Part shown: piece by piece, positions 2,771 through 41,931 of the stretch
Layout: each line of letters begins with the position of its first letter
Numbering within the stretch: position 1 is the first letter of the stretch
NCBI GenBank assembly: GCA_949752795.1
Contig: CATKHW010000009.1
Coordinates: 1,054,001-1,118,000, forward strand
DNA: 64,000 nt
DNA from: Hyperoodon ampullatus
Lineage: Eukaryota; Chordata; Mammalia; Artiodactyla; Ziphiidae
Direction of reading: 5' to 3'
The notes under the pieces: model-generated
Told to the model about the DNA's origin: nothing
The model's database searches: none
Seen by the model: the letters and a program-made list of their open reading frames with translations, nothing else
Made by a program: the position numbers and the translations under genes

Positions 2771-3936
2771 CATTGCATCATTGTCGAAGTCGTGCCCCTC
2801 TTCCTGTGCTTTAAAGGCAATTCCAATGTACCTCTTGAAATCTGATTCATGCTATTCTGGTTCCCTTTCAAGTCCACCCGGTTGCCTTCCCTCAACCGAT
2901 TTTTGGATGATTGTTGTGCGTTCTTACTCTGCCAGTTTGTGAATTGCTGTGCCCCTGAGCTCCATTTTTCAACTCGTTTTTGTGAGCTGACCGCAGGTCC
3001 AAAATTTTGGTTCAGGACCTATACTGGTTCCCGGCGGGTGGCTGAGACTTGGGTTAATTCTTCTTCCTGCCGGGAAATTAGAGTGACATGTGCCCGTCCA
3101 AATGCCTAACAGCTACTCTCTCATTGATTCTCCCTCTTCCCTTTCATCCTCTGCCAAATTGGCAACCTGTGCGAACCAGGAGGTTAAAGGGGCTGTCTCT
3201 CCAAGTTTGGAGATTGATAGTAAAGCAGTTGGAAAGTCAAACCGGAGCACCAGGAGAGGAATTATTAGTTGAGATTTAGAAACATTTCGTATTCACAGTG
3301 TGTCCATTCTCTAGGTTTCCTGTACATGTTATAACTGTAGTGATATTCCCTTTTACCTGGCGAGTTGGGACCCATGGAATTGTTGGAATGCATTATTTCT
3401 TTAAACAGTCTGTATTTTCTCGTTCAATCTCATCAATCCTCTCAGTCAAAAGTGTCCAGCCTTATGTCTCATCCAGCTGTCATTGTAGATAGGGTCATTC
3501 CAGGTTTCATCAGAGCCCCTGAATGAATTGTACAGAATTTCCCAGTTTTTTTGTTTTGTTTTTGAAAATCATTTATATAATGAGGTTGAGCTGATTTTCA
3601 CTGACGTGTTTATGCCGGTCTAGACACACTTGATTCCCTTACGGTTACATATCAATACATAGGTATTAAGATTCTTACTAGTCAGATATATTCCTCTGCA
3701 GGAATAGGTCTGTTGATTCCCGTTCACAGAGGAAGGAGTAGCTCTTGTCTATTCTGTATTTGGATTATGCAACGGTACCTGTGCTAATATCAAAATCTGG
3801 TTTTGTGCATCTCCCCACCTCTCCTTTCCCCTTAAGCATGCATATGTATGATTTCTAAATGTGAGACTCTGTTCTCTTTCCTAATTCAGTTCATGTGTAG
3901 CCATGTTTACATTTCCTTCATAAGTGATATCTTATG
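2703..3936. repeat. Satellite block A, truncated monomer at array junction
   Basis: This monomer carries the palindrome, the unassigned section and only the first ~400 bp of the L1-derived section. It breaks off at CATAAGTGATATCTTATG, where the minisatellite starts. It shares private variants with the monomer ending at 37,592: TTTACATTTCCTTCATAAG instead of TTTACAGGACC, GGATTATG before AACGGTACC, and CCTAATTCAG. Monomers inside block B lack these. Confidence 0.9.
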
Positions 3937-6900
3937 TCAGAATGCTCCATGGCTCTTGTCATCATAATGCTCCATGATGCTCGTCATCACAATTATCCAT
4001 GGCCATCTCATCACAATGCTCCACCGTCTTGCCATCACATTGCTCCATGTCCTGGTCATCACAATGCTCCATGTACCTTGTCATCACAATTCTCCACCTC
4101 TTTGTCATCACAATGCTCCCTGACACTTCTCATCACAAAGTTACATGCTCTTGTCATCACAATTCTCCATGCAATTGTCATCACAATGCTCCCTGACCCA
4201 TGTCATAGCAAGCTCCATTTGCTTGTCATCACAATGCTTCATGACATTATTATAAAAATTCTCAATGTCCCTTGTCATGACAGTGCTCCATGCCAATGTC
4301 ATCACAATTCTCCATGCAATTGTCATCACAATGCTCCCTGACCCATGTCATAGCAAGCTCCATTTGCTTGTCATCACAATGTTTCATGACATTGTTATAA
4401 AAATTCTCAATGTCCCTTGTCATGACAGTGCTCCATGCCAATGTCATCACAATGCTCCATGACACTTGTCATCACAATGCTCCAGGCCCTTGTCATCACA
4501 ATGCTCCAGGCCCTTGTCATCACAATGTTCCCTGACAACTGTCATCACAATGCTCCATGCCCCTTGTCAGTACAGTGCTCCATGATGCTCGTCATCACAA
4601 TTAACCAAGGTCTTCTCATCACAATGCTTCAGGGTTTTACCATCACAATGCTCCCTGCCCTGGTCATCTCAATGCTCCATGACCCTTGTCATCACAATTC
4701 TCCACATCCTTGTCATCACAATGCTCCTTGACACTTCTCCTCACAATGTGATATGCTCTTGTCATCACAATTCTGCATGCACTTGTCATCACAATGCTCC
4801 AGGACCCCTGTCATAGCAAGCTCCATGCACTTGTCATCACAATGTTTCAAGACGTGGTCATTAAAATTCTCTATGGCCCTTGTCATCACAATGATCCATG
4901 ATCTTGTCATCACAATGTTCCTTTACCTTTGTCATCACAATGTTCCTTTACCTTTGTCATCACAATCCTCCATGACACTTGGCATCAAAATGCTCCATGT
5001 CATTGACATCACAATGGAACATGAAATATGTCATCACAATGCTCCCTGCCAACTGTCTTAACAATAATCCATGATGTTTTCATCACAATGCTCCATGCCA
5101 TTGTCATCACAATGCTCCATGACACTTGTCATCACAATGCTCCAAGTCCTTGTCATCACAATGCTCCATGCCCTTGTCATCACAATGATCCATGACCTCT
5201 GTCATCACAATGTTCCCTGACACCTGTCATCACAGTGCTCCATGCCACTTGTCAGTACAGTGCTCCATGATGCTCGTCATCACAATTACCCAAGGTCTTC
5301 TCATCACAATGCTTCAGGGATTTACCATCAAAATGCTCCATGCCCCTGTCATCACAATGCTCCATGCCCTTGACATCCCAATGCTCCATGACCGCTGTCA
5401 TCACAATGCTCCGTGACTCCATTCATCACAATACTTCATGATCTTTGTCATCACAATGGTCAATGTCCTCATCATCACAAGGCTCTATGACCTCTGTCAC
5501 CACAATGCTCCATGAACTTTGCATCACAATTCTCCATGACCCTTGTCATCACAATGCTCCATGTCTTTCTCAGCACAATACGCAAAGACACTTGTCATCA
5601 CAATGCTCCATGCGCTTGTCAACACAATGCTCCACCAGCTTGTCATCACAATGCTCCATGCACTTCTCATCAAAATGCTCTGTCACCACTGATATCACAA
5701 TGTTCCATAACTACTCATCACAATATTCTCTCACCCTTCTCATCACAATGTTCCATGACCCCTGTCATCACAATACTACATGCCCTTATCATCACAGTGC
5801 TACATGACCCCTGACCTCACCATGCACCATAACACATGTCATCAAAATGCTCCATAACTTTTGTCATCACAAAGCTCAATGACCATTGGCATCACAATGA
5901 TCCATGTCATTGTCATCACAATGCTCCAGGAACCTTCTCATCACATTGCTCCATGCCCTTGTCATCACAAATGTCCATGACGCTTGTCATCAAATTGCTC
6001 GATGCCCTTCTCATAACAATGCTCCATGCCCTTGTCATTATAGTCCCCCATGAACCCTGTACCACAGTGTTCCAGGCCCTTGTCATCACAATGCTCCAGT
6101 CCCACTCTCATCACAATAATCCATGAAACTTTTCAGACCAATGCCCCATGGCCTTGTCATCACAATGCGCCATTACCCCTGTCATAACAATGCTCCATGA
6201 TCGCAGTCATCACAATGTTCCACAGCCTTGTCATCACAAGGCTCCATACACATGAAATCACAATGCTCCATGCCCTTGTCATCACAAAGCTCCATGATGC
6301 ATGTCTTCAGAATGCTCCATGGCCTTCTCATCACAATGCACCATTCCCTTGTCATCAGAATGCTCCACGACCCCTGTAATCACAATGCTCCATGCCCATT
6401 TTCATTAGAATGCTCCATGAGAATGTCATCACAACGCTCCATGGTTTTCTCATCACAATGCTCAAGGACCTTGTTATCACAATGCTCCTTTCTCTTGTCA
6501 TCACAATGCTCCATGACTCCTGTCATCACAATACTCCATGAACATTTTCAGCCCAGTGTTCCATGACATTCTCATCACAATACCCCATGACACCTGTCAT
6601 CACAATGCTCCATGGCCAATGTCATCACAACCCTCCATGACCCCCAACAACACAATGATCCGGGACTCTTGTCATCAAAATGCTCCATGCCCTTGTAATC
6701 ACAATGATCCATGCTCTTGTCATCCCAATGCTCCATGACCCCGTAATCACAATGCTCCGTGACGCTTGTCATCACAGTGCTCCATGACACTTGTCATTAC
6801 AATGCTCCATGCCTTTGTCATCAAAATGCTCCATGGCCTTGTCATCACAATGCTCCATGCACTTCTCATCACAATGCACCACAACCTTGTCATCAAAATG

Positions 6901-6970
6901 CTCCATGACCTTTGTCATCACAAAGCTCAATGACCCCTCTCATCACAATGCTCCAAACCTTTGTGATCAC

Positions 6971-8469
6971 AATGTTCCATAACACTTGTCATCAAAACGC
7001 TCCATGATGCCTGTCATCACAATACACCATGCCCATGTCATCACAATGCTCCACGTCCTTGTCATCACAATGCTCCATTACACCTGTCATAATAATTCTC
7101 CATGACACTTACCATCAAAAGGTTCCATGGCCTTGTCATCACAAGCCTCCATGACCCTTGTCATCACAATGCTCCAAGACCCCTCTAATCACAATGACCC
7201 ATTTCTTTGTCATCACAAAGCTCCATGATGCATGACATCAGAATGCTCCATGGCCTTCTCAACACAATGCTCCATGCCCTTGTCGTCACAATGCTCCAAC
7301 ACCCATGTAATCACAATACTCCATGCCCCTATTAATCTCAATGATCCATGAACCCTGTCATCACAATGCACCATGCCCATCATCATAATGCTTCATGCTA
7401 TTGTCATCACATTGAAATCAAAATGCTCCATGACCTCTGTCATCACAATGCTCCAAACCCTTGTGATCACAATGTTCCATAACACTTGTCATCAAAACGC
7501 TCCATGATGCCTGTCATCACAATAAACCATGCCCATGTCATCACAATGCTCCACGTCCTTGTCATCACAATGCTCCATTACCCCTGTCATAATAATGCTC
7601 CATGACACTTACCATCACAAGGTTCCATGGCCTTGTCATCACAAGCCTCCATGACCCTTGTCATCACAATGCTCCAAGACCCCTCTAATCACAATGATCC
7701 ATTTCTTTGTCATCACAAAGCTCCATGATGCATGACATCAGAATGCTCCATGGCCTTCTCATCACAATGCTCCATGCCCTTGCGTCACAATGCTCCAACA
7801 CCCATGTAATCACAATACTCCATGCCCCTATTCATCTCAATGATCCATGAACCCTGTCATCACAATGCACCATGCCCATCATCATAATGCTTCATGCTAT
7901 TGTCATCACAATGAAATCAAAATGCTCCATGACCTCTGTCATCACAATGCTCCAAACCCTTGTGATCACAATGTTCCATAACACTTGTCATCAAAACGCT
8001 CCATGATGCCTGTCATCACAATACACCATGCCCATGTCATCACAATGCTCCACGTCCTTGTCATCACAATGCTCCATTACCCCTGTCATAATAATGCTCC
8101 ATGACACTTACCATCACAAGGTTCCATGGCCTTGTCATCACAAGCCTCCATGACACTTGTCATCACAATGCTCCAAGACCCCTCTAATCACAATGATCCA
8201 TTTCTTTGTCATCACAAAGCTCCATGATGCATGACATCAGAATGCTCCATGGCCTTCTCAACACAATGCTCCATGCCCTTGTCGTCACAATGCTCCAACA
8301 CCCCTGTAATCACAATACTCCATGCCCCTATTCATCTCAATGCTCCATGAACCCTGTCATCACAATGCACCATGCCCATCATCATAATGCTTCATGCTAT
8401 TGTCATCACAATGAAATCAAAATGCTCCATGACCTCTGTCATCACAATGCTCCAAACCCTTGTGATCAC
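6971..8469. repeat. 500-bp higher-order repeat, three copies
   Basis: Three successive copies lie at 6,971-7,470, 7,471-7,969 and 7,970-8,469. Each begins AATGTTCCATAACACTTG and contains the same order of about 20 variant monomers, including GCCCATCATCATAATGCTTC and AATGAAATCAAAATGC. By eye they differ at only a handful of positions, so this is a recent amplification. After 8,469 the sequence diverges (CACAATTCCCCATGACGC rather than CAAAACGCTCC). Confidence 0.9.
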
Positions 8470-8885
8470 AATGTTCCATAACACTTGTCATCACAATTCC
8501 CCATGACGCTGGTCATTACAATTATCCATGGCCGTTTCATCACAATGCTCCATGCCCTTGTCATCACAATGCTTCAACACCCCTGTAATCACAATGCTCC
8601 ATGTCCCTTTTCATCACAATGCTCCATGAACCCTGTATCACAATGCACCGTGCCCATCACCATAATGTTGCATGCTATTGTCATCACAATGAAATCAAAA
8701 TGCTCAATGACCTCTGTCATCACAATGCACCAAACCCTTCTGATCAAAATGTTCCATAACACTTGTCATCACAATGCCCCATGACGCTGCTCATCACAAT
8801 TATCCATGGTCTTCTCATCACAATGCTCCATGATCTTTGTCATCACAATGCTCAATACACTTATCACAATGCTCCCTGACAGTTG

Positions 8886-11800
8886 TCATCAGTATGCTCC
8901 TTGAACCCTGTCATGACAAGGCTCCATGCATTTTTCCTCACAATGATCCATTCCCTATTCATCACAATGCTCCATGTCCTTGTCATCACAAAGCTCCATG
9001 ACGCATGTCATCAGAATGCTCCATTGTCTTCTCATCACAATGCTCCATGCCCTTGTAATCACATTGCTTCAAAACCCCTGTAATCTCCATGCTCCATGCA
9101 TCTTTTCATCAGAATGCTCCATGCCCTTGTCATCACAATTCTCCATGACCCTTGTCATCGCAATGTTCCAAGCCCTTGTCATCAAAATGCTCCATTACCT
9201 TTGTCATCACAATCCTCCATGACACTTGGTATCACAATGCTCCATGCCATTGTCATCACAATGGACAATGACATATGTCATCACAATGCTCCCTGACACC
9301 TGTCTTCTGAATATTCCATGACCTTGTCATCACAATGTTCCATGCCCTTGTCATCAAAATGAGCCATGCCCACTGTCATCACAATATTCCATGAAACATG
9401 TCAGACCAGTGTTCCATGCCACTCTCATCACAATGCTCCATGCTCTTTTCATCACAATGCTCCATGACCCCTGTCATCACAATGCTCCGTGACTACAGTC
9501 ATCACAATGCTTCATGACCTTTTTCCTCACAATGGTCCATGCCCTCGTCACACAAGGCTCTGTGACCTTTGTCACCACAATGCTCCCTGACCTTGTCATC
9601 TCAATGCTCCATGCCCACTGTCATCACAATAATCCATGAAACTTGTCAGACCAATGTTCCATGCCCCTGTCATCACGTTGCTCCATTCCCTTGTCGTCAC
9701 AATGCTCCATGACCCCTGCCATCACAATGCTCCGTGACTCCAGTCACCACAATGATTCATGACCTTTGTCCTCACAATGGTCCATGCTCTCATAACACAA
9801 GGCTCTGTGATATTTGTCACCACAATGCTCCATGAAATTTTAATCACAATGCTCTGTGTCCCTTGTCATCGCAATGCTCCATGCCTTTGTCAGCACAATG
9901 CTCCATGACACTTGTCATCAAAATGCTCCATGTGCTTGTCAGCACAATGCTCCATGACACATGTCATCACAATGTGCCATGCTCTTTTCATCACAATGCT
10001 CCACATACTTTTCATCACTATGCTCCATAAAACTTGTCATCACAATGCTGCATTCACTTCTCATCAAAATGCTCTCTCACCACATATATCACAATGTTCC
10101 ATCACTAGTCATCACAATACTCGCTCACCCCTGTCATCACAATGTTCCATGACCACTGTCATCACAGTGCTACATGCCCTTATCATCACAATGCTCCATG
10201 ACCCCTGACATCACCATGTTCCATAAACCCTGTCACAAAATGCTCCATGACCCATTTCATCACAATGCTTCATGACCCCTGACATCACAATATTCCATAA
10301 CCACTGTCATCAAAATATTCCATGACACTTTTATTCAAATTGCTCAATGACCCTGTCATCGCAATGCTCCCTGCCCTTCTCATCACAATGCACCACACCC
10401 TTGTCATCAAAATGCCCCATGGCATTTGTCATCACAAAACTCCATGACACTTGGCCTCACAATGCTCCATGCCATTGTCATCACAATGCTCAATGAAATC
10501 TCTCATCACATTGCTCCATGCCCTTGTCATCACAATGCTGCATTACACCTGTCATAACCGTGTTCCATGACGCCTGCCATCACAATGTTCCACGGCCTTG
10601 TCATCACAAGGCTCCATGACCCTTATCATCACAATGCTCCAAGACCTCTGTAATCACAATTCTCCATGCCACTTTTCATCTCAATGCTCCATGAACACTG
10701 TCATCACAATGCACCATGCCCATCATCATAATGATTCATGCTATTGTCATCACAATGAAATCAAAATGCTCCATGTCCTCTGTCATCACAATGCTCCAAA
10801 CCCTTCTGATCACAATGTTCCATAACACTTGTCATCACATGCCCCATGACGCTCGTCATCACAATGATGCAAGGCCTTCTCATCACAATGATCCATGACA
10901 TTTGTCACCACAATGCTCATTACACTTGGCATCACAACGCTCGCTGACACTTGTCATCAGTATGCTCCTTGAAAATTGTCATGACAATGCTCCATGCCTT
11001 TTTCATCACAATGATCCATTCCCTTTTCATCACAATGCTCCAAGACCCCTGTTATCACAATGCTCCGTGACTCCAGTCATCACAATGCTTCATGACATTT
11101 GTCATCACAGTGGTCAATGACCTCGTCACACAAAGCTCTGTGACGTTTGTCACCACAATGCTCCATGAAATTTTTATCACAATGCTCTGTGACACTTGTC
11201 ATCACAAAGCTCCATGCCTTGTCAGCACAATGCTCCATGACCCTTGTCATCACAATGCTCGATTCGCGTGTCAGCACAATGCTCCATAACCCATGTCATC
11301 AAAATGCACCATGCACTTGTCATCACAATGCTCCACATCCTTGTCATCAAAATGCTCCATAAACCTTGTCATCACAATGCTCCATGCACTTCTCCTCAAA
11401 TTCTTTCTCACCACTGATATCACAATGTTCCATCACTAGTCATCACAATATTCCCTCACCCCTGTCATCACAATATTCCATGACCCCTGTAATCACAATT
11501 CTCCATGCACTTGTCATCAAAAAGCTCCATGACGCATGTCATCAGAATGCTCCATGGCCTTCTCATCACAATGCTCCATGCCCTTGTCCTCACAATGCTC
11601 CAACACCCCTGTAATCACAATGCTCCATGTCATTTTCATCTCAATGCTCCATGAACCCTCTCATCACAATGCACCGTGCCCATCACCATAATATTTCATG
11701 CTATTGTCATCACAATGAAATCAAAATGCTCAATGACCACTGTCATCACAATGCACCAAACCCTTCTGATCTCAATGTACCAGAACACTTGTCATCGCAA

Positions 11801-14800
11801 TGCCCCATGATGCTGGTCATCACAATTATCCATGGTCTTCTCATCACAATGCTCCATGATCTTTGTCATCACAATGCTCCATACACTAATCATCACAATG
11901 CTCCCTGACAGTTGTCATCAGTATGCTCCTTGAACCCGGTCATGACAAGGCTCCATGCATTTTTCATCACAATGATCCATTCCCCTTTCATCACAATGCT
12001 CCAAGACCCCTGTAATCACAATGCTCCATGTCCTTGTCATCACAAAGGTCCATTACACATGTCATCAGAATGCTCCATTGCCTTCTCATCATAATGCTCC
12101 ATGCCCTTGTAATCACATTGCTTCAAAACCCCTGTAATCTCAATGCTCCATGCACTTTTTCATCAGAATGCTCCATGCCCTTGTCATCACAATGCTCCAT
12201 GACCCTTGTCATCGCAATGTTCCAAGCCCTTGTCATCAAAATGCTCCATTACCTTTGTCATCACAATCCTCCATGACACTTGGTATCACAATGCTCCATG
12301 CCATTGACATCACAATGGACAATGACATATGTCATCACAATGCTCCCTGACACCTGTCTTCACAATACTCCATGACCGTGTCATCACAATGTTCCATGCC
12401 CTTATCATCACAATGCACCATGCCCACTGTCATCACAATAATCCATGAAACATGTCAGACCAATGTTCCATGCCCATGTCATCACAATGCTCCATGCACT
12501 TGTCATCACAATGCTCCATGCACTTGTCTTCACAATGCTCCATGGCCCCTGTCATCACAATGCTCCGTGACTCCAGTCATCACAATGGTTCATGACCTTT
12601 GTCCTCACAATGGTCCATGCCCTCGTCACACAAGGCTCTGTGACCTTTGTCACCATAATGCTCCATGCACTTGTCATCTCAATGCTCCATGCCCCCTGTC
12701 ATCACAATAATCCATGAAACTTGTCAGACCAATGTTCCATGCCCCTGTCATCACATTGCTCCATGCCCTTGTCACCACAATGCTCCATGACACTTGTCAC
12801 CACTATGCTCGATACTCTTCTCATCACAATGCTCCATGCCCTTGTCATTACAATCCTCCATGACACATGTATCACAGTGTTCCGTTCCCTAGTCATCACA
12901 ATGTTCCATGCCGAATCTCATCACAATAATGCATGAAATTTTCAGAACAACGTTCCATGCCCTTGTCATCACAATGCTCCATGACCCCTTTCATCACAAT
13001 GCTCCGTGACTCTAGTCATCACAATGCTTCATGACCTATCTCATCACTATGGTCTATGCCCTCCTCACACAAGGCTCTGTGATCTATTTAACCACAATGC
13101 TCCATGAATATTTCATCCCAATGCTCTGTGTCCCTTGTCATCAAAATGTTCCATGCCTTTGTCAGCACAATGCTCCATGACACTGGTCATCAAAATGCTC
13201 CATGTGCTTGTCAGCACAGTGCTCCATGACCACTGTCATCACAATGCTCCTTGACTCCAGTCATCACAATGCTTCATGACTTTTGTCCTCACAATGATCC
13301 ATGCCCTCGTCACACAAGGCTCTGTGACCTTTGTCACCACAATGCTCCATGCCCTTGTCATCACAATGTGCCATGCCCACTGTCATCACAATAATCCATG
13401 AAACATGTCAGACCAATGTTCCATGCCACTGTCATCACATTGCTCCATGCCCTTGTCATCACAATGCTCCATGACCCCTGTCATCACAATGCACCGTGAC
13501 TCCAGTCATCACAAAATTTCATGACCTTTGTCCTCAGAGTGGTCCATGCCCTCGTCACACAAGGCTCTGTGATTTTTGTCACCACAATGCTCCATGAAAT
13601 TTTCATCACAATGCTCTGTGTCCCTTGTCATCACAATGCTCCAAGACCTCTGTAATCACAATTCTCCATGCCACTTTTCATCTCAATGCTCCATGAACAC
13701 TGTCATCACAATGTACCATGCCTATCATCATAATGATTCATGCTATTGTCATCACAATGAAAACAAAAAGCTCCATGTCTTCTGTCATCACAATGCTCCA
13801 AACCCTTCTGATCACAATGTTCCATAACACTTGTCATCACATGCCCCATGATGCTCGTCATCACAAAAATGCAAGGTCTTCTCATCAAGAACCCTGTTAT
13901 TCACAATGCTCCGTGACTCCAGTCATCACAATGCTTCGTGACATTTGTCATCACAATGGTCCATGACCTCATCACACAAAGCTCTGTGACCTTTGTCACC
14001 ACAATGCTCCATGAAATTTTTATCACAATGCTCTGTGACCCTTGTCATCACAAACCTCCATGCCTTTTTCAGCACAATGCTCCATGACCCTTGTCATCAC
14101 AATGCTCCATTACCCCTGTCATAACAATGCTCCATGACCCCTGCCATCACAATGTTCCACCGCCTTGGCATCCAAGGCTCCATGACCCTTGTCATCACAA
14201 TGCTCCAAGACCCCTGTAATCACAATGCTCCATGCCCCTGTCATCACAAAGATCCATGACACATGTTATCAGAATGCTCCATGGCCTTCTCATCACAATG
14301 CTCCATGACCTTGTCATCACAGTGCTCCAAGACCCCTGTAATCACAATGCTCCATGCCCCTATTCATCAGAATGCTACATTAGATTTGTCATCACAAGGC
14401 TCCATGGGCTTCCCATCACACTGCTCCAGGACCTTGTCATCAAAATGCTCCATCCCCTTGTCATCACAATGCTCCTTGACCACTGTCATCACAATACTCC
14501 ATGAACATTTTCAGGCCAATGCTCCATGACCTTCTCATCACAATGCTCCATTACCCATGTCATCACATTGCTCCATGACCCCTCTCATCACAATGCTCCA
14601 AGACACCTGTCATCACAATGCTCCATGCCCCTTGTCATTACAGTGATCCATGACGCTCTTCATCATAATTATCCATGGTCTTTTCATCACAATGCTCCAC
14701 GGTCTTGCTATCACAATTCTCCATGCCCTGTTCATCACAATTTTCCATGTCCCAAGTCATTACAATTCTCCACGTCCTTGACATCACAATGCTTCGTGAC

Positions 14801-26800: not shown

Positions 26801-26917
26801 TGCTCCATGCCCTTGTCATCACAATGCTCCAAGACAACTGTAATCAAAATGCTCCATGCCACTTTTCATCTCAATGCTCCATGAACTCTGTAATCACAAT
26901 GAACCATGCCCATCACC
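23885..26917. repeat. 1,797-bp higher-order repeat, ~1.7 copies
   Basis: The first copy starts near 23,885 and the second near 25,682. Anchor points such as GACGCTCGAC (23,911 and 25,708) and GAACTCTGTAATCAC (25,086 and 26,883) are all exactly 1,797 bp apart, with no visible net indel over ~1.2 kb. The second copy is cut off by the junction with satellite block B at 26,917/26,918, inside the module ACCATGCCCATCA. Confidence 0.88.
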
Positions 26918-27714: not shown

Positions 27715-27786
27715 TTGGCCAAAAAGGGCTTATGCGTTTTCTCCTTAATATATTCAGGAGAAAACACATACGCCCTTTCTGGCCAA
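27715..27786. mobile_element. Palindromic MITE copy
   Basis: TTGGCCAAAAAGGG and CCCTTTCTGGCCAA form inverted arms around AATATATT. The arms mismatch at a few positions, including TTAATATATT at the centre. Confidence 0.65.
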
Positions 27787-29453
27787 GTGCATCATTGTCG
27801 AAGTTGTCCCCCTCTTCCTGTGCTTTAAATGTGATTGCAATGTACCTCTTGAAATATATTTCCTGCTATTCTGGCTCGCTTTCAAATCCACCTCGTTGCA
27901 TTCCCTCAACAGATTTTTGGACGATTGTTGTCCTTTACTTCTCTGACAGTTTGTGCATTGCTGTGCCCCTAAGCTCCATTTTTCAACTCGTTTTTTGTGA
28001 GTTGACCGCAAGTCCAAATTTTGGTTCAAGACCTCTACTGGTTCCCGGCGGGTGGCTGAGACTTCGGTTAATTCTTCTTCCTTCTGGGAAATTAGAGTGA
28101 CATATGCCCGTCCAAATGCCTAACAGCTACTCTCTCATTGGTTCTCCCTCTTCCTTTTCATCTTCTGCCAAATTGGCAACGTGTGCGACCCAGGAGGTTA
28201 AAGGGGCTGTCTTTCCAAGTGGGGAGATTGGTAGTAAATCTGTTGGAAAGTCAAACCGGAGAACCAGGAGAGGGCTTATTAGTTGAGTTTTAGAAATCTT
28301 TCATATTCACATTGTGTCCATTCTCTAGGGTTCCCTTACATGTTATTGCTGTAATAATATTCCCTTCAACATGGAGAATTGGGACCCTTGGAATGTGGGC
28401 CACTCATTATTGCTTTAAAGGGTCTGCATTTGCTCACCGAATCTCACCAATCCTCTCAGTCCCAAGAGTCCAGCCTTTTGCCACATCCAGATGTCGTTGT
28501 AGATAGGGTCATTCCAGGTTTCATCAGAGCCCCTGAAGGAATTGTAAAGAATTTCCCTGTTTTTTTGTTTTGTTTTTGAAATTCCTTTTTATAGTGGGTT
28601 TGAAATTATTCTCACTGCCATGTTTATGCCAGTCTAGACAAACTTGATTCCCTTACGGAGACATATCTAATACATAGGTTTTAAGATTCTTACCAGTCAG
28701 ATATATTCCTCTGCGGGAAATATGGCGTTTTGAGTCCCTTTCACTGAGGAAAGTGTAGGTATTTTCTATTCCGTAGTTGGTTTTTGGAACGGTACCTGTA
28801 CTAATATCAAACTCTCGTTTTATGCATCACCCTACCTCTCCTTCCCCGTTAAGCAGGCATAAGTGTGTTTTCTAAATGTGAGACTCTGTTCTCTTTCCTA
28901 ACTCAGTTCATGTGTAGCCATGTTTACAGGACCTTCATAAGTGATATCTTATGATAAGTTTCTTTTTCTCTGTAACTTATTTCACTTAGAATCATCGTAA
29001 CTGAATCCACTCATTTTGCTGCTACTGGCCTTATGACATTGATTTAATAGCTGACTGATATTCCATCGTATGTAAGTAACACAATTTCTTGAACCATTTT
29101 TGTCTTTCCTGGGATATTTAAGGTGTACCCAAGTTGAGGTTCTTGTAAGCAGTGCAGCCCTAAATTTTGCGGTGGCTGTGTCTTATTGATTTTCAGTTTT
29201 CCCAAGGTATACTCCCTAGACTTGTAGTGCCCTTGGCTCTGTAGCTCTGTTGTTTCCTTGTTTTAGGGAACACAGTGCACTCCTCCAGAGAGGCAGTTGG
29301 CACTTTACATCCTGTCCATCAGCATAACTAGGCTCCCTGTTCTCCAGGGCCTGCATTGCCTTTCTGGTTTTTACACATTTTGCAGATGTCCCTTTTGACC
29401 GGTGGGAAGTGATACTTCATTGTAGTTCAGATTTTCATTGCCCGCTTGCTTGC
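27715..29453. repeat. Satellite block B monomer 1 (1,739 bp)
   Basis: This is a complete monomer: palindrome 27,715-27,786, unassigned section to about 28,557, then the L1-derived section. It shares the palindrome variant CTCCTTAATATATT with the next two monomers, suggesting local homogenisation. No intact coding sequence is present. Confidence 0.9.
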
Positions 29454-29525
29454 TTGGCCAAAAAGAACGTATGCGTTTTCTCCTTAATATATTCAGGAGA
29501 AAACACATACGGCATTTCTGGCCAA
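29454..29525. mobile_element. Palindromic MITE copy
   Basis: Same element as in the other monomers. The left arm carries AAAAAGAACGTATG and the right arm CATACGGCATTTCTGG, so this copy has more arm mismatches than most. Confidence 0.6.
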
Positions 29526-31191
29526 GTGAATCATTGTTGAAGTTATGCCCCTCTTCCTGTGCTTTAGAGGTGATTCCAATGTACCTCTTGAAACCTGTTT
29601 CCTGCTATTCTGGCTCGCTTTGAATTCCGCCTCGTTGCCTTCCCTCAAATGATTTTTTGACCATTGTTGTCCTTTATTTCTCTGACAGTTTGTGCATTGT
29701 TGTGACCCCATGATCCATTTTTAAACTCGTTTTTTGTGAGCTGACCGAAAGTCCAAAATTTTGGTTCAGGACCTATACTGGTTCCCGGCACGTGGCTGAG
29801 ACTTTGGTTAATTCTTCTTTCTTCCGGGAAATTAGAATGACATGTGCCCGTCCAGATGCCTAACAGCTACTCTCTCATTGGTTCTCCCTCTTCCCTTTCA
29901 TCCTCTACACAATTGGCCACCTGTGAGAACCAGGAGGTTAAAGGGGCTGTCTCTCCAAGTTGGGAGATTGATAGTAAAGCAGTTGGAAAGTCAAACCGGA
30001 CCACCAGGAGAGGGATTATTAGTTGAGTTTTAGAAACCTTTCGTATTCACAATGTGTCCATTCTCTAGGTTTCCCGTGCATGTTATAGATGTAGTAATAT
30101 TCCCTTCAACCTGGAGAGTTGGAAACCTTGGAATGTGTGCCACGTGTTATTGCTTTAAAGGGTCTGCATTTGCTCACCGAATCTCACCAATCCTCTCAGT
30201 CCCAAGTGTCCAGCCTTATGACACATTCAGCTGTCGTTGTAGATAGGGTCATTCCAGGTTTCATCAGAGCCCCTGAAGGAATTGTAAAGAATTTCCCTGT
30301 TTTTTTGTTTTGTTTTTGAAATTCCTTTTTATAGTGGGTTTCAACTGATTCTCACTGCCATATTTATACCATTCTAGACAAATTGATTCCCTTACGGAGA
30401 CATATCAATACATAGGTTTTAAGATTCTTATCAGTCAGATATATTCCTCTGAGGGAAATATGGGGTTTTGAGTCCCTTTCACTGAGGAAAGTGTAGGTCT
30501 TGTCTATTCCGTATTTGGTTTTTGGAACGGTACCTGTACTAATATCAAACTCTGGTTTTATGCATCACCCCACCTCTCCTTCCCCCTTAAGCAGGCATAA
30601 GACTTTTTTCTAAATGTTAGACTCTGTTCTCTTTCCTAACTCACTTCATGTGTAGCCATGTTTACAGGACCTTCATAAGTGATATCTTATGATAAGTTTC
30701 TTTTTCTCTGTGACTTATTTCACTTAGAATCATTGTACCTGAATACACTCATTTTGAAGCTACTGGCCTTATGACATTGATTACATGGCTGACTGATATT
30801 CCATTGTACGTAAGTAAAACAATTTCTTGAACCATTTTTGTCTTTCCTGGGATATTTAAGGTGTACGCAAGTTGACGTTCTTGTAAGCAGTGCAGCCCTA
30901 AATTTTGCGGTGGCACTGTCTTATTGATTTTCAGTTTTCCCAAGGTATATTCCCTAGAGTGGAAGTGCCCTTGGCTCTGTTGCTCTGTTCTTTCCTTCTT
31001 TTAGGGAACACAATGCACTCCTCCGGAGAGGCAGATGGCAATTTACATGCTGCCCATCATCATATCTAGGCTCCCTGTTCTCCAGGGCCTGTCTTGCCTT
31101 TCTGGTTTTTACATATTTTGCAGATATCCCTTTTGACCGGTGGGAAGTGATACTTCATTTTAGTTCAGATTTGCGTTGCCCGCTTGCTTGC
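29454..31191. repeat. Satellite block B monomer 2 (1,738 bp)
   Basis: This is a good reference monomer: palindrome 29,454-29,525, unassigned section 29,526-30,298, and L1-derived section 30,299-31,191. The L1-derived section begins with a T-rich tract (remnant of an antisense poly(A) tail). It then follows the L1 3'UTR and ORF2 tail in the order seen in intact cetartiodactyl L1 copies. Confidence 0.9.
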
Positions 31192-31263
31192 TTGGCCAAA
31201 AAGGACGTACACGTTTTCTCCTTAATATATTCAGCAGAAAACACATACACTCTTGCTGGCCAA
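31192..31263. mobile_element. Palindromic MITE copy
   Basis: The arms TTGGCCAAAAAGGACG and CTTGCTGGCCAA flank CTTAATATATTCAG. The palindrome is imperfect. Confidence 0.6.
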
Positions 31264-32928
31264 GTGCATCATTGTCGAAGTTGTGCCCCTGTTCCTGTGC
31301 TTTAAAGACGATTCCAATGTACCTCTTGAAATCTGTTTCCTTCTATTCTGGCTCACTTTCAAGTCCGCCTCGTTGCCTTCCCTCAACAGATTTTCGGACG
31401 ATTGTTGTCCTTTATTACTCTGCCAGTTTGTGCATTGTTGTGCCCCTGAGTTCCATTTTTCAACTCGTTTTTTGTGAGCTGACCGCAATCCAAAATTTTG
31501 GTTCAGGACCTATACTGGTTCCCGGCGGGTGCCTGAGACTTTGGTTAATTCTTCTTCCTTCCGGGAAATTAGAGTGACATGTTCCCGTCCAAATGCCTAA
31601 CAGCTACTCTCTCACTGGTTCTCCCTCTTCCCTTTCATTCTCTACCAAATTGGCCACCTGTGCGAACCAGGAGGTTAAATGGGCTGTCTCTCCAACTTGG
31701 GAGATTGATAGTAAAGCAGTTGGAAAGTCAAACCGGATCACCAGGAGAGGGATTATTAGTTGAGTTTTAGAAACCTTTCATTTTCACAGTGTGTCCATTC
31801 TCTCGGTTTCCCGTACATGTTATAGCTGTAGTAATATTCCCTTCATCCTGTAGAGTTGGGACCCTTGGAATGTGTGCCACGCATTATTGCTTTAAAGAGT
31901 CTGTATTTGCTCACCGAATCTCACCAATCCTCTCAGTCCCAAGAGTCCAGCCTTATGCCACATCCAGCTGTCGTTTTAGATAGGGTCATTCCAGGTTTCA
32001 TCAGAGCCCCTGAAGGAATTGTAAAGAATTTCCCTGTTTTTTTGTTTTCTTTTTGAAATTCGTTTTTATAGTGGGTTTTAGCTGATTCTCACTGCCATGT
32101 TTATGCCAGTCTAGACACACTTGATTCCCTTACGGAGACATATGAATACATAGATTTTAAGATTCTTACCAGTCAGATATATTCCTCTGCGGGAAATATG
32201 GCGTTTTGAGTCCCTTTCACTGAGCAAAGTGTAGGTCTTTTCTTTTCCGTATTTGGTTTTTGGAACGGTACCTGTACTAATATCAAACTCTGGTTTTATG
32301 CATCACTCCACCTCTCCTTCCCCCTTAAGCAGGCACAAGAGTGTTTTCTAAATATGAGGCTCTGTTCTCTTTCCTAACTCAGTTCATGTGTAGCCATGTT
32401 TAGAGGACCTTCATAAGTGATATCTTATGATAAATTTATTTTTCTCTGTGAATTATTTCACTTAGAATCATCGTACCTGAATCCACTCATTTTGCTGCTA
32501 CTGGCCTTATGACATTGATTTCATGGCTGGGGGATATTACATCGTATGTAAATACCACAATTTTTGAACCATTTTTGTCTTTCCTGAGATATTTTAGGTG
32601 TACCCAAGTTGAGGTTCTTGTAAGCATTGCAGCCCTAAATTTTTGGGTGGCTCTATCTTATTGATTTTCAATTTTCCCAAGGTATATTCCCTAGACTGGA
32701 AGTGCCCTTGGTTCTGTAGCTCTGTTGTTTCCTTGTTTTAGGGAACACAATGCACTCCTCAAGAGAGGCAGTTGGCAATTTACATCCTGCCCATCAGCAT
32801 AACTAGGCTCCCTGTTCTCCATTGCCTGTCTTGTCTTTCTGGCTTTTACGGATTTTGCAGATGTAACTTTTGACCGCTGGGAAATGATACGTCATTGTAG
32901 TTGAGATTTGCATTGCCCGCTTGCTTGC
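31192..32928. repeat. Satellite block B monomer 3 (1,737 bp)
   Basis: This is a complete monomer. It shares with monomer 4 the variants TTCATCCTGTAGAGTTGGG, CATTTTAGATAGGG or CGTTTTAGATAGGG, and GAAATTCGTTTTTATA. These are absent from monomers 1, 2 and 5, so monomers 3 and 4 are closest relatives in their right halves. Confidence 0.9.
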
Positions 32929-33000
32929 TTGGCCAAAAAGGATGTATGCGTTTCCTCCTGATTATATTCAGGAAGAAACGTATACGCCCTTTTTGGCCAA
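32929..33000. mobile_element. Palindromic MITE copy
   Basis: TTGGCCAAAAAGG and CCTTTTTGGCCAA are perfect outer arms. The inner part carries CCTCCTGATTATATTCAGGAAG with several mismatches. Confidence 0.65.
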
Positions 33001-34622
33001 GTGCATCATTGTCGAAGTTGTGCCCCTCTTCCTGTGCTTTAAAGGCGATTCCAATGTACCTCTTGAAATCTGTTTCCTGCTATTCTGGCTCGCTTTGAAG
33101 TCTCCCTCGTTGCCTTCCCTCAACAGATTTTTGGCCCAATTTTGTCCTTTATTACTCTGACAGTTTGTGCTTTGTTGTGCCCCTAAGCTCCATTTTTCAA
33201 CTCGTTTTTGGTGAGCTGACCATAAGTCCAAAATTTTGGTTCAGGACCTATACTGGTTCCCGGCGGGTGGCTGAGACTTTGGTTAATTCTTCTTCCTCCT
33301 GGTAAATTAGAGTGACATATGCCCGTCCAAATGACTAACAGCTACTCTCTCATTGGTTCTCCCTCTTCCCTTTCATCCTCTGCCAAATTGGCAACCTGTT
33401 CGAACCAGGAGGTTAAAGGGGCTGTCTTTCCAAGTTGGGAGATTGATAGTAAAGCAGTTGGAAAGTCAAACCGGAGCACCAGGAGAGGGATTATTAGTTG
33501 AGTTTTAGAAACCTTTCGTATTAACAGTGTGTCCATTCTCTAAGTTTCCCGTACATGTTATAGCTCTAGTAATATTCCCTTCATCCTGTAGAGTTGGGAC
33601 CCTTGGAATGTGTGCCACGCATTATTGCTTTAAAGGGTCTGTATTTGCTCACCAAATCTCACCAATCCTCTCAGTCCCAAGTGTCCAGCCTTATGCCACA
33701 TCCAGCTGTCATTTTAGATAGGGTCATTCCAGGTTTCATCAGAGCCCCTGAAGGATTGTAAAGAATTTCCCTGTTTTTTGTTTTCTTTTTGAAATTCGTT
33801 TTTATAATGGGTTTTAGCTGATTCTCACTGCCATGTTTATTCCAGTCTAGACACACATGATTCCCTTACGGAGACATATCAATACATAGATTTTAAGATT
33901 CTTACCAGTCAGATATATTCCTCTTGGGGAAATATGGCGTTTTGAGTCCCTTTCACTGAGGAAAGTGTAGGTCTTTTCTATTCCGTATTTGGTTTTTGGA
34001 ACGGTACCTGTACTAATATCAAACTCTGGTTTTATGCATCACCCCACCTCTCCTTCCCCCTTAAGCAGGCACAAGGGTGTTTTCTAAATGTGAGGCTCTG
34101 TTCTCTTTCTTAACTCAGTTCATGTGTAGCCATGTTTAGAGGAACTTCATAAGTGATATCTTATGATAAATTTATTTTTCTCTCTGACTTATTTCACTTA
34201 GAATCATGGTACCTGAATCCACTCATTTTGCTGCTACTGGCCTTATGACATTGATTTCATGGCTGAGGGATATTACATCGTTTGTAAATACCACAATTTT
34301 TTGAACCATTTTTGTCTTTCCTGGGATATTTAAGGTGGGTGTGGCTCTATCTTATTGATTTTCAGTTTTCCCAAGGTATATTCCCTAGACTGGAAGTGCC
34401 CTTGGCTCTGTAGCTCTGTTGTTTCCTTGTTTTAGGGAACACAATGCACTCCTCCAGAGAGGCAGTTGGCAATTTACATCCTGCCCATCAGCATAACTAG
34501 GCTCCCAGTTCTCCATTGCCTGTCTTGCCTTTCTGGCTTTTACACATTTTGCGGATGTCCCTTTTGACCGCTGGGAAATGATACTTCATTGTAGTTGAGA
34601 TTTGCATTGCCCGCTTGCTTGC
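32929..34622. repeat. Satellite block B monomer 4, 48-bp deletion (1,694 bp)
   Basis: This is a complete monomer, shortened by about 45-50 bp at 34,336. There GATATTTAAGGTG joins directly to GGTGTGGCTC; other monomers have the GTACCCAAGTTGAGG stretch between. The breakpoints share a GGTG microhomology. Its left half shares TTTGTGCTTTGTTG and TTTTTGGTGAGCTGACC with the monomer at 36,356, two positions away. Confidence 0.9.
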
Positions 34623-34692
34623 TTCGCCAAAACGGCGTATGCGTTTTCTCCTGAATATATTCAGCGGAAAATGCATATGCCCTTTTTGGCCA
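34623..34692. mobile_element. Palindromic MITE copy
   Basis: The left end is altered (TTCGCCAAAACGG), the right end is CCTTTTTGGCCA, and the centre AATATATT is kept. Confidence 0.6.
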
Positions 34693-36355
34693 CTTGCATC
34701 ATTGTCGAAATTGTGCCCCTCTTCCGGTGCTTTAAAGGCAATTCAAATGTACCTCTTGAAATCTGTTTCCTGCTATTCTGGCTGGCTTTGAAGTCTGCCA
34801 CCTTGCCTTCCCTCAAAAGATATTTGGACGATTGTTGTCCTTTACTTCTCTGACAGTTTGTGCATTGTTGTGGCCCTAAGATCCATTTTTCAACTCGTTT
34901 TTTGTGAGCTGACCGCAAGTCCAAAATTTTGGTTCAGGACCTATACTGGTTCCCGGCATGTGGCTGAGACTTTGTTTAATACTTCTTCCTGCCGGGAAAT
35001 TAGAGTGACATGTGCCCGTCCAAATGCCTAACAGCTACTCTCTCATTGGTTCTCCCTCTTCCCTTTCATCCTCTGCCAAATTGGCAACCTGTGCGAACCA
35101 GGACGTTAAAGGGGCTGTCTTTCCAAGTTGGGAGATTGATAGTAAAGCAGTTGGAAAGTCAAACCGGAGCAGCAGAGGGACTATTAGTTGAGTTTAAAAA
35201 ACTTTCATATTCACAGTGTGTCCATTCTCTATGTTTCCCGAACATGTTATAGCTGTAGTAATATTCCCTGCAACCTGGAGAGTTGGGACCCTTGGAATGT
35301 GTGCCACACATTATTGCTTTAAATGGTCGGCATTTGCTCACCGAATCTCACCAATCCTCTCAGTCCCAAGTGTCCAGCCTTATGCCACATCCAGCTGTCA
35401 TTGTAGATAGGGTCATTCCAGGTTTCATCAGAGCCCCTGAAGGAATTGTAAAGAATTTCTCTGTTTTATTGTTTTGTTTTTGAAATTCCTTTTTATAGTG
35501 TGTTTGAACTGATTCTCACTGCTATGTTTATGGCAGTCAAGACACACTTCATTCCCTTACGGAGACATATCAATACATAGGTTTTAAGTTTCTTACTAGT
35601 CAGATATATACCTCTGCGGGAAATATGGGGTTTTGAGTCCCTTTCACTGAGGAAAGTATAGGTCTTTTCTGTTCCTTAGTTGGTTTTTGGAACGGTACAT
35701 GTACTGATATCAAAGTCTGGTTTTATGCATCACCCCTCCTCTCCTTCCCCCTTAAGCAGGCATAAGAGTGTTTTCTAAATGTGAGACACTGTTCTCTTTC
35801 CTAACTCAGTTCATGTGTAGCCATGTTTACAGGTCCTTCATAAGTGATATCTTATGATAAGTTTCTTTTTCTCTGTGACTTATTTCACTTAGAATCATCG
35901 TATCTCAATCCACTCATTTTGCTGCTACTGGCCTTATAACATTGATTTCATGGCTGACGGATATTCCATCGTACGTAAGTAACAAAATATCTTGAACCAT
36001 TTTTGTCTTTCTTGGGATATTTAAGGTGTACCCAAGTTGAGGTTCTTGTAAGCAGTGCAGCCCTAAATTTTGGGGTGGCTCTGTCTTGTTGATTTTCAAT
36101 TTTACCAAGGTATATTCCCTAGACTGGAAGTACCCTTGGCTCTGTAGCTCTGTTGTTTACTTGTTTTAGGGAACACAATGCAGTCCTCCAGAGAGGCAGT
36201 TGGCAGTTTACATCCTGCCCACCAGCATAACTAGGCTCCCTTTTCTCCAGGGCCTGTCTTGCCTTTCTGGTTTTTACACATTTGCGGATGTCCCTTTTGA
36301 CCGGTGGGAAGTGATACTTCATTGTCGTGTAGATTTGCATTGCCCGCTTGCTTGC
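34623..36355. repeat. Satellite block B monomer 5 (~1,733 bp)
   Basis: This is a complete monomer with palindrome, unassigned section and L1-derived section (from about 35,460). Its palindrome left arm (CGCCAAAACGGCG) resembles the diverged block C copy at 52,691 in reading ACGGCGTATG. Confidence 0.9.
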
Positions 36356-36427
36356 TTGGCCAAAAAGGGTGTATGCATTTTCTCCTGAATATATTCAGGA
36401 GAAAACACATACGCCCTTTCTGGCCAA
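36356..36427. mobile_element. Palindromic MITE copy
   Basis: TTGGCCAAAAAGGGTG and CGCCCTTTCTGGCCAA flank CTCCTGAATATATTCAGGAG. The inner 20 bp are a perfect palindrome. Confidence 0.65.
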
Positions 36428-37592
36428 GTACATCATTGTCAAAGTTGTGCCCCTCTTCCTGTGCTTTAAAGGCGATTCCAATGTACCTCTTGAAATCTGT
36501 TTCCTGCTATTCTGGCTCGCTTTGAAGTCTCCCTCGTTGCCTTCCCTCAACAGATTTTCGGCCCATTTTTGTCCTTTATTACTCTGACAGTTTGTGCTTT
36601 GTTGTGCCCCTAAGCTCCATTTTTCAACTCGTTTTTGGTGAGCTGACCGTAAGTCCAAAATTTTGGTTCAGGACCTATACTGGTTCCCGGCGGGTGGCTG
36701 AGACTTTGGTTAATTCTTCTTCCTCCTGGGAAATTAGAGTGACATATGCCCGTCCAAATGCCTAACAGCTACTCTCTCATTGGTTCTCCCTCTTCCCTTT
36801 CATCCTCTGCCAAATTGGCAACCTGTGCGAATCAGGAGGTTAAAGGGGCTGTCTTTCCAAGTTGGGAGATTGATAATAAAGCAGTTGGAAAGTCAAACCG
36901 GAGCACCAGGAGAGGGACTATTATTTGAGTTTTAGAAACCTTTCGTATTCACAGTGTGTCCATTTTCTAGGTTTCCCGTACATGTTATAGCTGTAGTAAT
37001 ATTCCCTTCAACCTGGATAGTTTGGAACCTTGGAATGTGTGCCACGCGTTATTGCTTTAAAGGGTCTGCATTTGCTCACCGAATCTCACCCATCCTCTCA
37101 GTCCCAAGTGTCCAGCCTTATGCCATATCCAGCTGTCATTGTAGATAGGGTCATTCCAGGTTTCATCAGAGCCCCTGAAGGAATTGTAAAGAATTACCCT
37201 GTTTTTTTGTTTTGTTTTTGAAATTCCTTTTTATAGTGGTTTTGAGCTGATTCTCATGGCCATGTTTATGCCAGTCTACACACACTTGATTCCCTTTCAG
37301 AGACATATCAATACATAGGTTTTAAGATTCTTACTACTCTGATATATTCCTCTGCGGGGAGCATGTGTGTTTAGTCCCGTTCACTGAGGAAGGAGTAGGT
37401 CTTGTCTATTCTGTATTTGGATTATGGAACGGTACCTGTGCTAATATCAAACTCTGGTTTTGTACATATCCCCACCTCTCTTTCCCCTTAAGCAGGCATA
37501 AGTATGTTTTCTAAATGTGTGACACTGTTCTCTTTCCTAATTCAGTTCATATGTAGCCATGTTTACATTTCCTTCATAAGTGATATCTTATG
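36356..37592. repeat. Satellite block B, truncated monomer at second junction
   Basis: This monomer stops at CATAAGTGATATCTTATG, exactly the base where block A stops at 3,936. Minisatellite of the same type and order follows: a CTCTTGTCATCATAATGCTC series, then AATTATCCATGG, then the TCTTGCCATCACATTGCTCC unit. It carries the same junction-specific variants as block A's last monomer (TTTACATTTCCTTC, GGATTATGGAACGG, CTAATTCAG). Confidence 0.92.
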
Positions 37593-37729
37593 TCATTATG
37601 CTCCATGTCTCTTGTCATCATAATGCTCTATGATGCTCTTCATCACAATTATCCATGGTCTTCTCATCACAATGCTCCACAGTCTTGCCATCACATTGCT
37701 CCATGCCCTGATCATCACAATGCTCCTTT
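37593..37729. repeat. Minisatellite array 2, left fragment
   Basis: These ~135 bp of 25-bp minisatellite precede the L1 insertion. Monomer order matches 3,937-4,075 almost base for base. The array resumes at 44,321 on the far side of the L1. Confidence 0.93.
37716..37729. repeat. L1 target-site duplication, left copy
   Basis: CACAATGCTCCTTT here repeats at 44,321-44,334. The last three T overlap the start of the L1 poly(T) (antisense tail), so the duplication is 11-14 bp long. Confidence 0.85.
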
Positions 37730-37756
37730 TTTTTTTTTTTTTTTTTTTATCACAAA

Positions 37757-37762
37757 TTTAAT
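37757..37762 (-). terminator. L1 poly(A) signal ATTAAA
   Basis: The minus strand reads ATTAAA nine bases before the poly(A) tail. The homologous position in the older L1 near 62,765 reads ATTCAC, so the signal is a change in this lineage that would end the transcript earlier than in the older copy. Confidence 0.7.
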
Positions 37763-41873: not shown

Positions 41874-41931
41874 TTTCTTAATTGTTTTGGGTTCGTTATT
41901 GTAGGTCTTTTCCTTCTGTTGTGTTTCTTGC

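What the first reader, a model, noticed from the sequence alone, without database searches (positions are those of the whole stretch)
3643..37730. Satellite/minisatellite junction repeated 33,656 bp apart: a giant composite higher-order unit
Seen: the 1.74-kb satellite breaks at the same base (GATATCTTATG) at 3,936 and 37,592, and is followed by the same ordered minisatellite variants for ~135 bp. The satellite sequence just before both breaks shares private variants (TTTACATTTCCTTC, GGATTATG before AACGG, CTAATTCAG) absent from interior monomers. Inference: block plus array was duplicated as one unit of about 33.7 kb (a megasatellite built of two unrelated tandem repeats), rather than the two families meeting twice by chance.
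Basis: partly seen in the sequence, partly recalled or inferred. Interest (0 to 1): 0.75.

Follow-up and report, generated by a model that had tools for sequence, protein, structure and literature searches.

The report
Whale composite heterochromatin repeat cassette
Two unrelated tandem repeats in what looks like a whale or dolphin genome are joined at one exact base thousands of times, because whole mixed blocks of the two were copied together through the heterochromatin; the two joins in this window belong to a larger ordered block rather than to one 33.7-kb repeat.

Summary
This junction (J) occurs at least 2,607 times in the window's own assembly, control 0. Arrays return to satellite through three recurrent joins: Jb 2,215, Ja 162, Jc 11. 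A stretch of a second contig, C21, repeats the window region's order J-Jc-J-Ja-J-Jb-spacer. Each window junction is 97.8-98.7% identical to its same-rank partner there; the two are 87.5% identical to each other. Spacing of J runs from 20.6 to 69.5 kb, and satellite blocks differ by whole monomers. Best reading: a hierarchical composite satellite (L1-derived satellite, roughly 98 Mb of minisatellite, a spacer with ERV and L1 remnants) copied as multi-block cassettes on several contigs, with a later L1 insertion in the second array. Only about 335 kb was read in full, so order genome-wide rests on listings. Closest analogue: ape subterminal caps. New variant of a known kind.

The parts
1..3936 (+). 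End of a satellite block (1.74-kb monomers) that begins at junction Jc 14.2 kb upstream of the window (C30:1039789)
   Evidence: satellite from C30:1039789 to 1057936, starting at phase 916 of the reference monomer and ending at 1738
3936..3937 (+). Sat-to-mini junction J (beta type); same-rank partner at C21:136058878
   Evidence: 2,607 copies genome-wide; 97.8% over 600 bp to partner
3937..26919 (+). 24-25-bp minisatellite array (23.0 kb), GC skew mostly -0.39 to -0.50 per kb
26919..26920 (+). Mini-to-sat junction Ja (satellite resumes at reference phase 1443); same join at C30:977721, C21:136079000, C21:139344797
   Evidence: (162 copies, up to 3 mismatches)
26920..37592 (+). Satellite block of about 6 monomers
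37592..37593 (+). Sat-to-mini junction J (gamma type); same-rank partner at C21:136084500
   Evidence: 98.7% over 600 bp to partner
37593..37727 (+). First 135 bp of the gamma minisatellite array, left of the L1
   Evidence: 99.2% over 130 bp to C21:136084506-136084635
37728..44318 (-). Full-length-looking L1 (T tract at 37,728, GC-rich far end at 43.4-44.3 kb) inserted into the array; CACAATGCTCC plus ambiguous Ts on both sides
   Evidence: empty site in L032
44319..52588 (+). Rest of the gamma minisatellite array; with the 135 bp about 8.4 kb
   Evidence: matched in four ordered pieces at 96.7-99.1% with C21:139355642-139364016
52588..52599 (+). Mini-to-sat junction Jb, variant A (satellite resumes at about phase 403-408)
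   Evidence: 2,215 copies, up to 2 mismatches
52599..56832 (+). Degraded satellite, about 2.4 monomers
   Evidence: mean 78.7% to reference; 97.4% over 4,964 bp to the C21 copy
56833..64000 (+). Spacer (continues to about C30:1118236): remnants that look like broken ERV pol, a short tandem repeat, two L1 3' pieces
   Evidence: 94.5% over 7,363 bp to C30:899601-906950; left edge 1,652 copies

Best explanation
The region is part of a hierarchical composite satellite in the heterochromatin of an apparently cetacean genome. A few founder joins between an L1-derived 1.74-kb satellite and a 24-25-bp minisatellite arose, by inference once each: one sat-to-mini join (J) and three mini-to-sat joins (Ja, Jb, Jc). 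Multi-block cassettes carrying these joins were then copied onto several long contigs (shown by same-base joins, conserved order, 97-98% matching blocks). Inside the blocks lengths changed by whole satellite monomers and by stretches of minisatellite (shown; unequal exchange as the cause is inferred). Junction-proximal monomers lie outside the clade of interior monomers, as if they escaped homogenisation (inferred), so each junction keeps its own lineage. Copies carrying rarer joins nest inside commoner ones, suggesting successive amplification waves (inferred). The window holds junctions two (beta) and three (gamma) of one such cassette, with a later L1 insertion in the third minisatellite block.
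For: J 1,452 + 1,155 copies up to 3 mismatches, reversed control 0; intact crossings at the same satellite position 127,099; Jb 2,215, Ja 162, Jc 11, controls 0. In the DNA read, 8 of 8 sat-to-mini transitions are J and 10 of 10 mini-to-sat transitions are Ja, Jb or Jc; but the three classes were defined on the 5 C30 joins, 4 of the 8 and 4 of the 10 lay in C21 stretches chosen because the hit was already listed, and 2 of the 8 are the finding itself. Same order J-Jc-J-Ja-J-Jb-spacer on C30 and C21. Tree of 15 J and 46 other rows: same-rank pairs supported 100/99, 100/100, 100/99. Jc-to-J satellite 18,148 vs 5,998 bp, seven monomers apart; first minisatellite 51.4 vs 14.6 kb with both ends about 98% alike. 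The 9 listed Ja with the CATATC variant all lie 26-55 kb downstream of a Jc on the same strand (100 of 162 Ja are listed).
Against: Only about 335 kb was read in full (264 kb of C30 with the window, 71 kb of C21) plus eight 3-kb loci of C7; C21 has an unread 10 kb inside the compared stretch, and its Jb and spacer come from listings. Segmentation ignored pieces under 200-300 bp, and L033-L036 were read by motif and BLAST only. The census totals use different mismatch limits and are lower bounds. In the 600-bp tree J needs 3 changes, well-supported branches force at least 2, and none of 200 bootstrap trees had J as one side of a branch, so a single origin of J is not shown by the tree. Intact crossings outnumber J 49 to 1 in the genome but about 8 to 1 on C30 (33 to 4), so most of the satellite seems to lie outside the composite. 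Waves and exchange between chromosomes are inferred; which contigs belong together is unknown.
Confidence: 0.85

Rival explanations
1. One tandem duplication of a 33.7-kb unit (minisatellite plus satellite) made the second junction from the first, giving a megasatellite with that period.
For: Exact shared break, shared order for about 134 bp and shared motifs; satellite blocks Ja-J recur on C30 at near-equal length, 10,712 and 10,673 bp.
Against: J1 and J2 are 87.5% identical over 600 bp while each is 97.8-98.7% identical to a junction on C21; spacings range from 20.6 to 69.5 kb; the satellite resumes at different phases after the two arrays.
Confidence: 0.05
2. A breakage or insertion hotspot: the minisatellite entered the satellite many times at one preferred base.
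For: One exact base in each sat-to-mini transition seen (8 of 8); J is not one clade in the tree.
Against: The satellite does not resume next to the break but at phases 1443, about 403 and 916; ten sites picked as diagnostic are shared by 14 or 15 of 15 junction rows and at most 6 of 46 others; whole blocks match in order.
Confidence: 0.03
3. The junction itself was spread by gene conversion between satellite blocks, without copying of whole units.
For: Satellites are thought to homogenise by conversion (recalled), and J1-J2 identity is steadily high only in the last 200 bp.
Against: Block order, both ends of minisatellite blocks, the degraded satellite and the 7.4-kb spacer are shared at 92-98% over many kb.
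Confidence: 0.05
4. Assembly artefact: misjoins or collapsed copies in a hard heterochromatic region.
For: Satellite regions are a common place for assembly errors (recalled); no reads were available here.
Against: The same base occurs over 2,600 times on both strands and on several contigs, with 1-2% differences between same-rank copies and block lengths differing by whole monomers.
Confidence: 0.03

Closest known systems
Common cetacean satellite, L1-derived (Kapitonov, Holmquist and Jurka 1998, not seen itself; passages citing it seen in PMC9659126 and PMC6947457)
   Same: 1.74-kb monomer (published length outside delphinoids recalled), very high copy, similar to the 3' part of L1 on the opposite strand (64.4% over a 404-column alignment).
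   Different: The passages seen say only that the monomer resembles, or comes from, the 3' part of L1; they say nothing of a second tandem family or fixed joins. Published monomer letters were not available to compare.
Ape subterminal heterochromatic caps: 32-bp pCht satellite with 32-34-kb segmental-duplication spacers, about 400-700 copies (PMC12758386, outline with abstract and passages seen)
   Same: Short-unit satellite arrays interleaved with long spacers that are copied many times; exchange between nonhomologous chromosomes proposed there.
   Different: Here two tandem families alternate, the joins are fixed to single bases, the spacer is about 7.4 kb of repeat remnants with at least 1,652 left edges, and rarer joins nest in commoner ones. 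Methylation was not testable; position and exchange stayed inconclusive.
Higher-order repeats such as human alpha-satellite HORs (recalled)
   Same: Multi-member units copied as a whole, with member rank conserved between copies.
   Different: Members are blocks of two unrelated families, kilobases to tens of kb long, with variable block length, not a fixed series of one monomer family.
Human composite repeats and macrosatellites such as D4Z4 (recalled)
   Same: Units built of several repeat classes, in tandem.
   Different: Those have regular periods of a few kb and no arrays of variable length inside (recalled).

Membership tests
Common cetacean satellite | Monomer near 1.75 kb (length outside delphinoids recalled) | tested here: met
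   Nine spacings between crossings in the window: six of 1,734-1,738 bp, 1,696, 1,691, and 1,754 in the degraded part
Common cetacean satellite | Similarity to the 3' part of L1 | tested here: met
   64.4% over a 404-column alignment to the window's L1 near its 3' end, E 2e-11
Common cetacean satellite | Very high copy number | tested here: met
   127,099 intact crossings at up to 3 mismatches
Common cetacean satellite | Sequence match to the published monomer, in a named cetacean | not testable with these tools
   69.5, 33.7, 35.7 kb on C30; 20.6, 25.6 kb on C21
   87.5% to each other; 97.8% and 98.7% to C21 partners
Spacer-punctuated satellite caps (ape type) | Short-unit satellite arrays with a spacer repeated hundreds of times | tested here: met
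   Minisatellite 115,112 exact 22-mers; spacer edge 1,652
Spacer-punctuated satellite caps (ape type) | Exchange between nonhomologous chromosomes | tested here: inconclusive
   J is on C7 (117.5 Mb) and C21 (151 Mb); the 97.8-98.7% same-rank junctions compared are C30 against C21, and the chromosome of C30 (3.1 Mb) is unknown
Spacer-punctuated satellite caps (ape type) | Subterminal position | tested here: inconclusive
   Listed satellite or minisatellite places lie at the start of C1, C9, C12, both ends of C7 and the end of C21; exception C7:68.3 Mb; lengths of C1, C2, C6, C8, C9, C12 were not shown; lists are capped and telomeres were not checked
Spacer-punctuated satellite caps (ape type) | Hypomethylated spacers | not testable with these tools
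   No methylation data
Site-specific insertion | Target sequence resumes beside the break | tested here: not met
   In the 5 C30 joins mapped the satellite resumes at phases 1443, about 403-408 and 916, not at the J phase

The most novel reading that the evidence does not exclude
Roughly 5% of this genome (about 150 Mb: minisatellite 98 Mb, its satellite blocks about 37 Mb if C30 is typical, spacers about 12 Mb; my estimates) is built by nested co-amplification of cassettes of two unrelated tandem families whose single-base joins act as clonal markers: J and Jb (over 2,000 copies) contain a Ja wave (about 160), which contains a Jc wave (about 11). Joins resist homogenisation, so heterochromatin genealogy and exchange between chromosomes could be read directly from junction sequences.
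Probability: 0.5. Interest if true: 0.72.

Novelty: new variant of a known kind. Interest (0 to 1): 0.6.

Why it matters
Satellite arrays are thought to lose their history through homogenisation. Here the joins between two satellite families keep it: same-rank joins on two contigs are 1.3-2.2% apart while joins within one cassette are 9-13% apart. That gives a countable marker for how large heterochromatin is copied and moved, in a group (cetaceans, if the identification holds) noted for karyotype uniformity (passages of PMC10815390). It also points to a minisatellite of roughly 98 Mb, 3.5% of the assembly by my estimate, that I did not see in the listings of my literature searches.

Tried and rejected
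Chance meeting of the two families: rejected by 2,607 junctions with control 0. A 33.7-kb period: rejected by spacings and by the tree. Site-specific insertion: rejected by the resumption phases. Continuing the J1-J2 minisatellite alignment beyond the L1: 400-bp windows of the second array matched many places of the first at about 77-92% with no single diagonal, so no longer agreement between J1 and J2 is claimed. Covariation of the arms of the palindrome in each monomer: not significant, 3,173 of 20,000 permutations. First monomer comparison was spoilt because the eight C7 loci were on the other strand; redone. Pfam on five spacer pieces: 4 with no family, 1 weak hit (MLV integrase C-terminal, 20.9 bits against a cutoff of 29.2), so the ERV reading rests partly on my eye. 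A text search for the minisatellite letters found 0 papers.
Full report
What is in the window. The window is C30:1054001-1118000 of a 2.83-Gb, 755-contig assembly. It reads: satellite (1-3,936), minisatellite of 24-25-bp units (3,937-26,919), satellite (26,920-37,592), minisatellite (37,593-37,727 and 44,319-52,588) split by an L1 (37,728-44,318), degraded satellite (52,599-56,832), and a spacer (56,833 to beyond the window). Six of nine satellite spacings are 1,734-1,738 bp. The monomer resembles the 3' part of L1 on the opposite strand (64.4% over a 404-column alignment, E 2e-11). Reviews cite Kapitonov et al. 1998 for an L1-derived common cetacean satellite (passages of PMC9659126 and PMC6947457).

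The observation. The minisatellite variants then agree for about 134 bp. The second array is cut there by the L1. Copy D1 on C21 lacks the L1 and is continuous across the site (left 130 bp 99.2%, right 1,377 bp 98.1%); it parts from the J1 order at the same point, so the L1 is not what limits the agreement. Of 8 junctions in the DNA read, CTAATTCAG is at 8, TTTACATT[TC]CC at 6 and GGATTATGNAACGG at 3.

The junction is genome-wide. The 42-base junction pattern, up to 3 mismatches, has 1,452 forward and 1,155 reverse copies; the pattern read backwards has none. All 8 junctions in the DNA read match within 3 mismatches. The intact crossing at the same satellite position has 127,099 copies, 47 of 61 candidate crossings in the DNA read being within the limit. 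So about one crossing in fifty is a junction in the genome, against 4 to 33 on C30: most of the satellite seems to lie outside the composite.

Return joins. On C30 the minisatellite goes back to satellite five times, in three ways: Ja at reference phase 1443 (twice), Jb at about 403-408 (twice), Jc at 916 (once). Counts: Ja 162 (up to 3 mismatches), Jb 2,215 (up to 2), Jc 11 (up to 3), controls 0. Together 2,388, close to the 2,607 of J; the limits differ and all are lower bounds. In C21 stretches five more returns fall in the same classes, but four of them (Jc 136052881, Ja 139344797, Jb 139364016, Jb 139478654) were fetched with the hit known; only Ja 136079000 was met unforeseen. Of 8 sat-to-mini transitions, all J, two are the finding, four were fetched with the hit known, and two (C30:988432 and 1127258) were met unforeseen. 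Pieces under 200-300 bp were ignored in the segmentation.

Order. C30 runs Ja(977,721)-J(988,432)-Jc(1,039,789)-J(1,057,936, window 3,936)-Ja(1,080,920)-J(1,091,592, window 37,592)-Jb(1,106,599)-spacer(1,110,832). C21 runs J(136,038,281)-Jc(136,052,881)-J(136,058,878)-Ja(136,079,000)-J(136,084,500) in fetched DNA with an unread gap 136,066,001-136,076,000, then Jb at 136,087,324 and spacer at 136,091,567 from the listings. Of the 11 Jc, 9 have a listed Ja 26-55 kb downstream on the same strand, and the 9 listed Ja with the CATATC variant are exactly these; 62 of 162 Ja places were not listed. Six of 11 Jc have a listed Ja 51-68 kb upstream.

Kinship. Over 600 bp upstream of the break, C30 and C21 partners of equal rank are 98.5%, 97.8% and 98.7% identical; the two window junctions are 87.5% identical, and the first C30 junction is 88.3% and 90.8% identical to them. 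J2 is the eleventh nearest row to J1, and J1 the fortieth nearest to J2. A tree of 15 junction rows and 46 other rows pairs the equal ranks with support 100/99, 100/100 and 100/99; 39 of the 46 other rows form one clade without any junction, the other 7 being diverged monomers near the spacers. Junctions as a group need 3 changes (shuffled mean 13.4, 0 of 500 as low); well-supported branches force at least 2, so the tree does not show one origin. Ten sites, picked for being shared by at least 85% of junction rows and at most 15% of others, are in 14 or 15 of 15 against at most 6 of 46.

Blocks move whole. C21:139344797-139369000 carries Ja, 10.7 kb of satellite, J of gamma type, 8.5 kb of minisatellite, Jb and degraded satellite running into the spacer. 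Its junction is 96.5% and 96.0% identical to the two other gamma junctions of the map; its minisatellite matches the window's gamma array in four ordered pieces at 96.7-99.1%, and its degraded satellite with the spacer edge at 97.4% over 4,964 bp. Against the Ja-satellite blocks of C30 the best satellite matches are 91.6% and 94.1%. The spacer of the window is 94.5% identical over 7,363 bp to one 211 kb upstream, and its left edge has 1,652 copies. A second Jb variant on C21 is 92.3% identical over 5.4 kb.

Lengths. Jc-to-J satellite is 18,148 bp on C30 and 5,998 on C21, a difference of seven monomers; Ja-to-J is 10,673 and 5,501, a difference of 5,172 bp, three monomers within 42 bp, the C30 block holding one monomer of 1,691 bp (arithmetic mine). 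The first minisatellite is 51.4 kb on C30 and 14.6 kb on C21, with both ends about 98% identical. This fits unequal exchange inside blocks.

Amount. The exact 22-mer CTTGTCATCACAATGCTCCATG has 115,112 copies; the arrays read hold 240 in 204.1 kb, which scales to about 98 Mb, 3.5% of the assembly. Intact crossings times monomer length give about 221 Mb of satellite, 7.8%. If C30 is typical, about 37 Mb of that is in the composite. These are my estimates.

Where. Exact J places listed are on C7, C21 and C22 because the list stops at about 100. On C21 the listed J, Jb and spacer places run forward up to 147.03 Mb and reverse from 147.12 Mb, one switch; on C22 they switch several times.

Mechanism. 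Shown: fixed joins, the same rank order on two contigs, whole-block copies, length change by monomers, one L1 insertion absent from the matching copy. Inferred: single origin of each join, amplification in waves (Jc within Ja within J/Jb), exchange between chromosomes, and escape of junction monomers from homogenisation.

Known kinds. Ape subterminal caps pair a 32-bp satellite with 32-34-kb spacers in about 400-700 copies, with evidence of exchange between nonhomologous chromosomes (PMC12758386, outline with abstract and passages). The present system resembles them in architecture; membership is not claimed. The blue whale paper (PMC10919930) and the VGP Phase I preprint (PMC13320880) were searched by term only; the passages shown say nothing of this composite. 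In searches I saw titles and starts of abstracts of the papers listed (not all that matched: for example 20 of 31, 20 of 78 and 12 of 417), and none describes it; the library lacks most subscription papers.

Noticed in passing
window 37,728-44,318: Full-length-looking minus-strand L1 inserted in the minisatellite; absent from the matching C21 copy, so it probably came after the cassettes separated.
   Followed up: yes
window 3,937-26,908 and 44,321-52,587: Minisatellite arrays have a GC skew of mostly -0.39 to -0.50 per kb over tens of kb, so the two strands differ strongly in composition.
   Followed up: no
window 57,600-61,200: Spacer holds what look like broken minus-strand ERV pol remnants (one weak MLV integrase C-terminal hit, below cutoff).
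   Followed up: partly
window about 1,003-1,075, 2,700-2,772 and eight more places: Satellite monomers hold a palindrome of about 72 bp (arms 26-35 of 36 matching in 9 of 10 copies, 15 in one); arm covariation not significant.
   Followed up: partly
window 59,809-59,999: Short tandem repeat of period about 72 bp, 2.8 copies, inside the spacer.
   Followed up: no
G000 C21, between 147,027,294 and 147,115,882: Orientation of listed junction, Jb and spacer places switches once in a 15-Mb block at the end of the contig, suggesting one large inversion.
   Followed up: no
Jb places: Jb comes in three sequence variants interleaved along C21 and C22; variant A follows Ja in four places seen and is mostly followed by a spacer edge ending GGAA, variant G by one ending GGGA, with at least one exception (C21:136237882).
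   Followed up: partly
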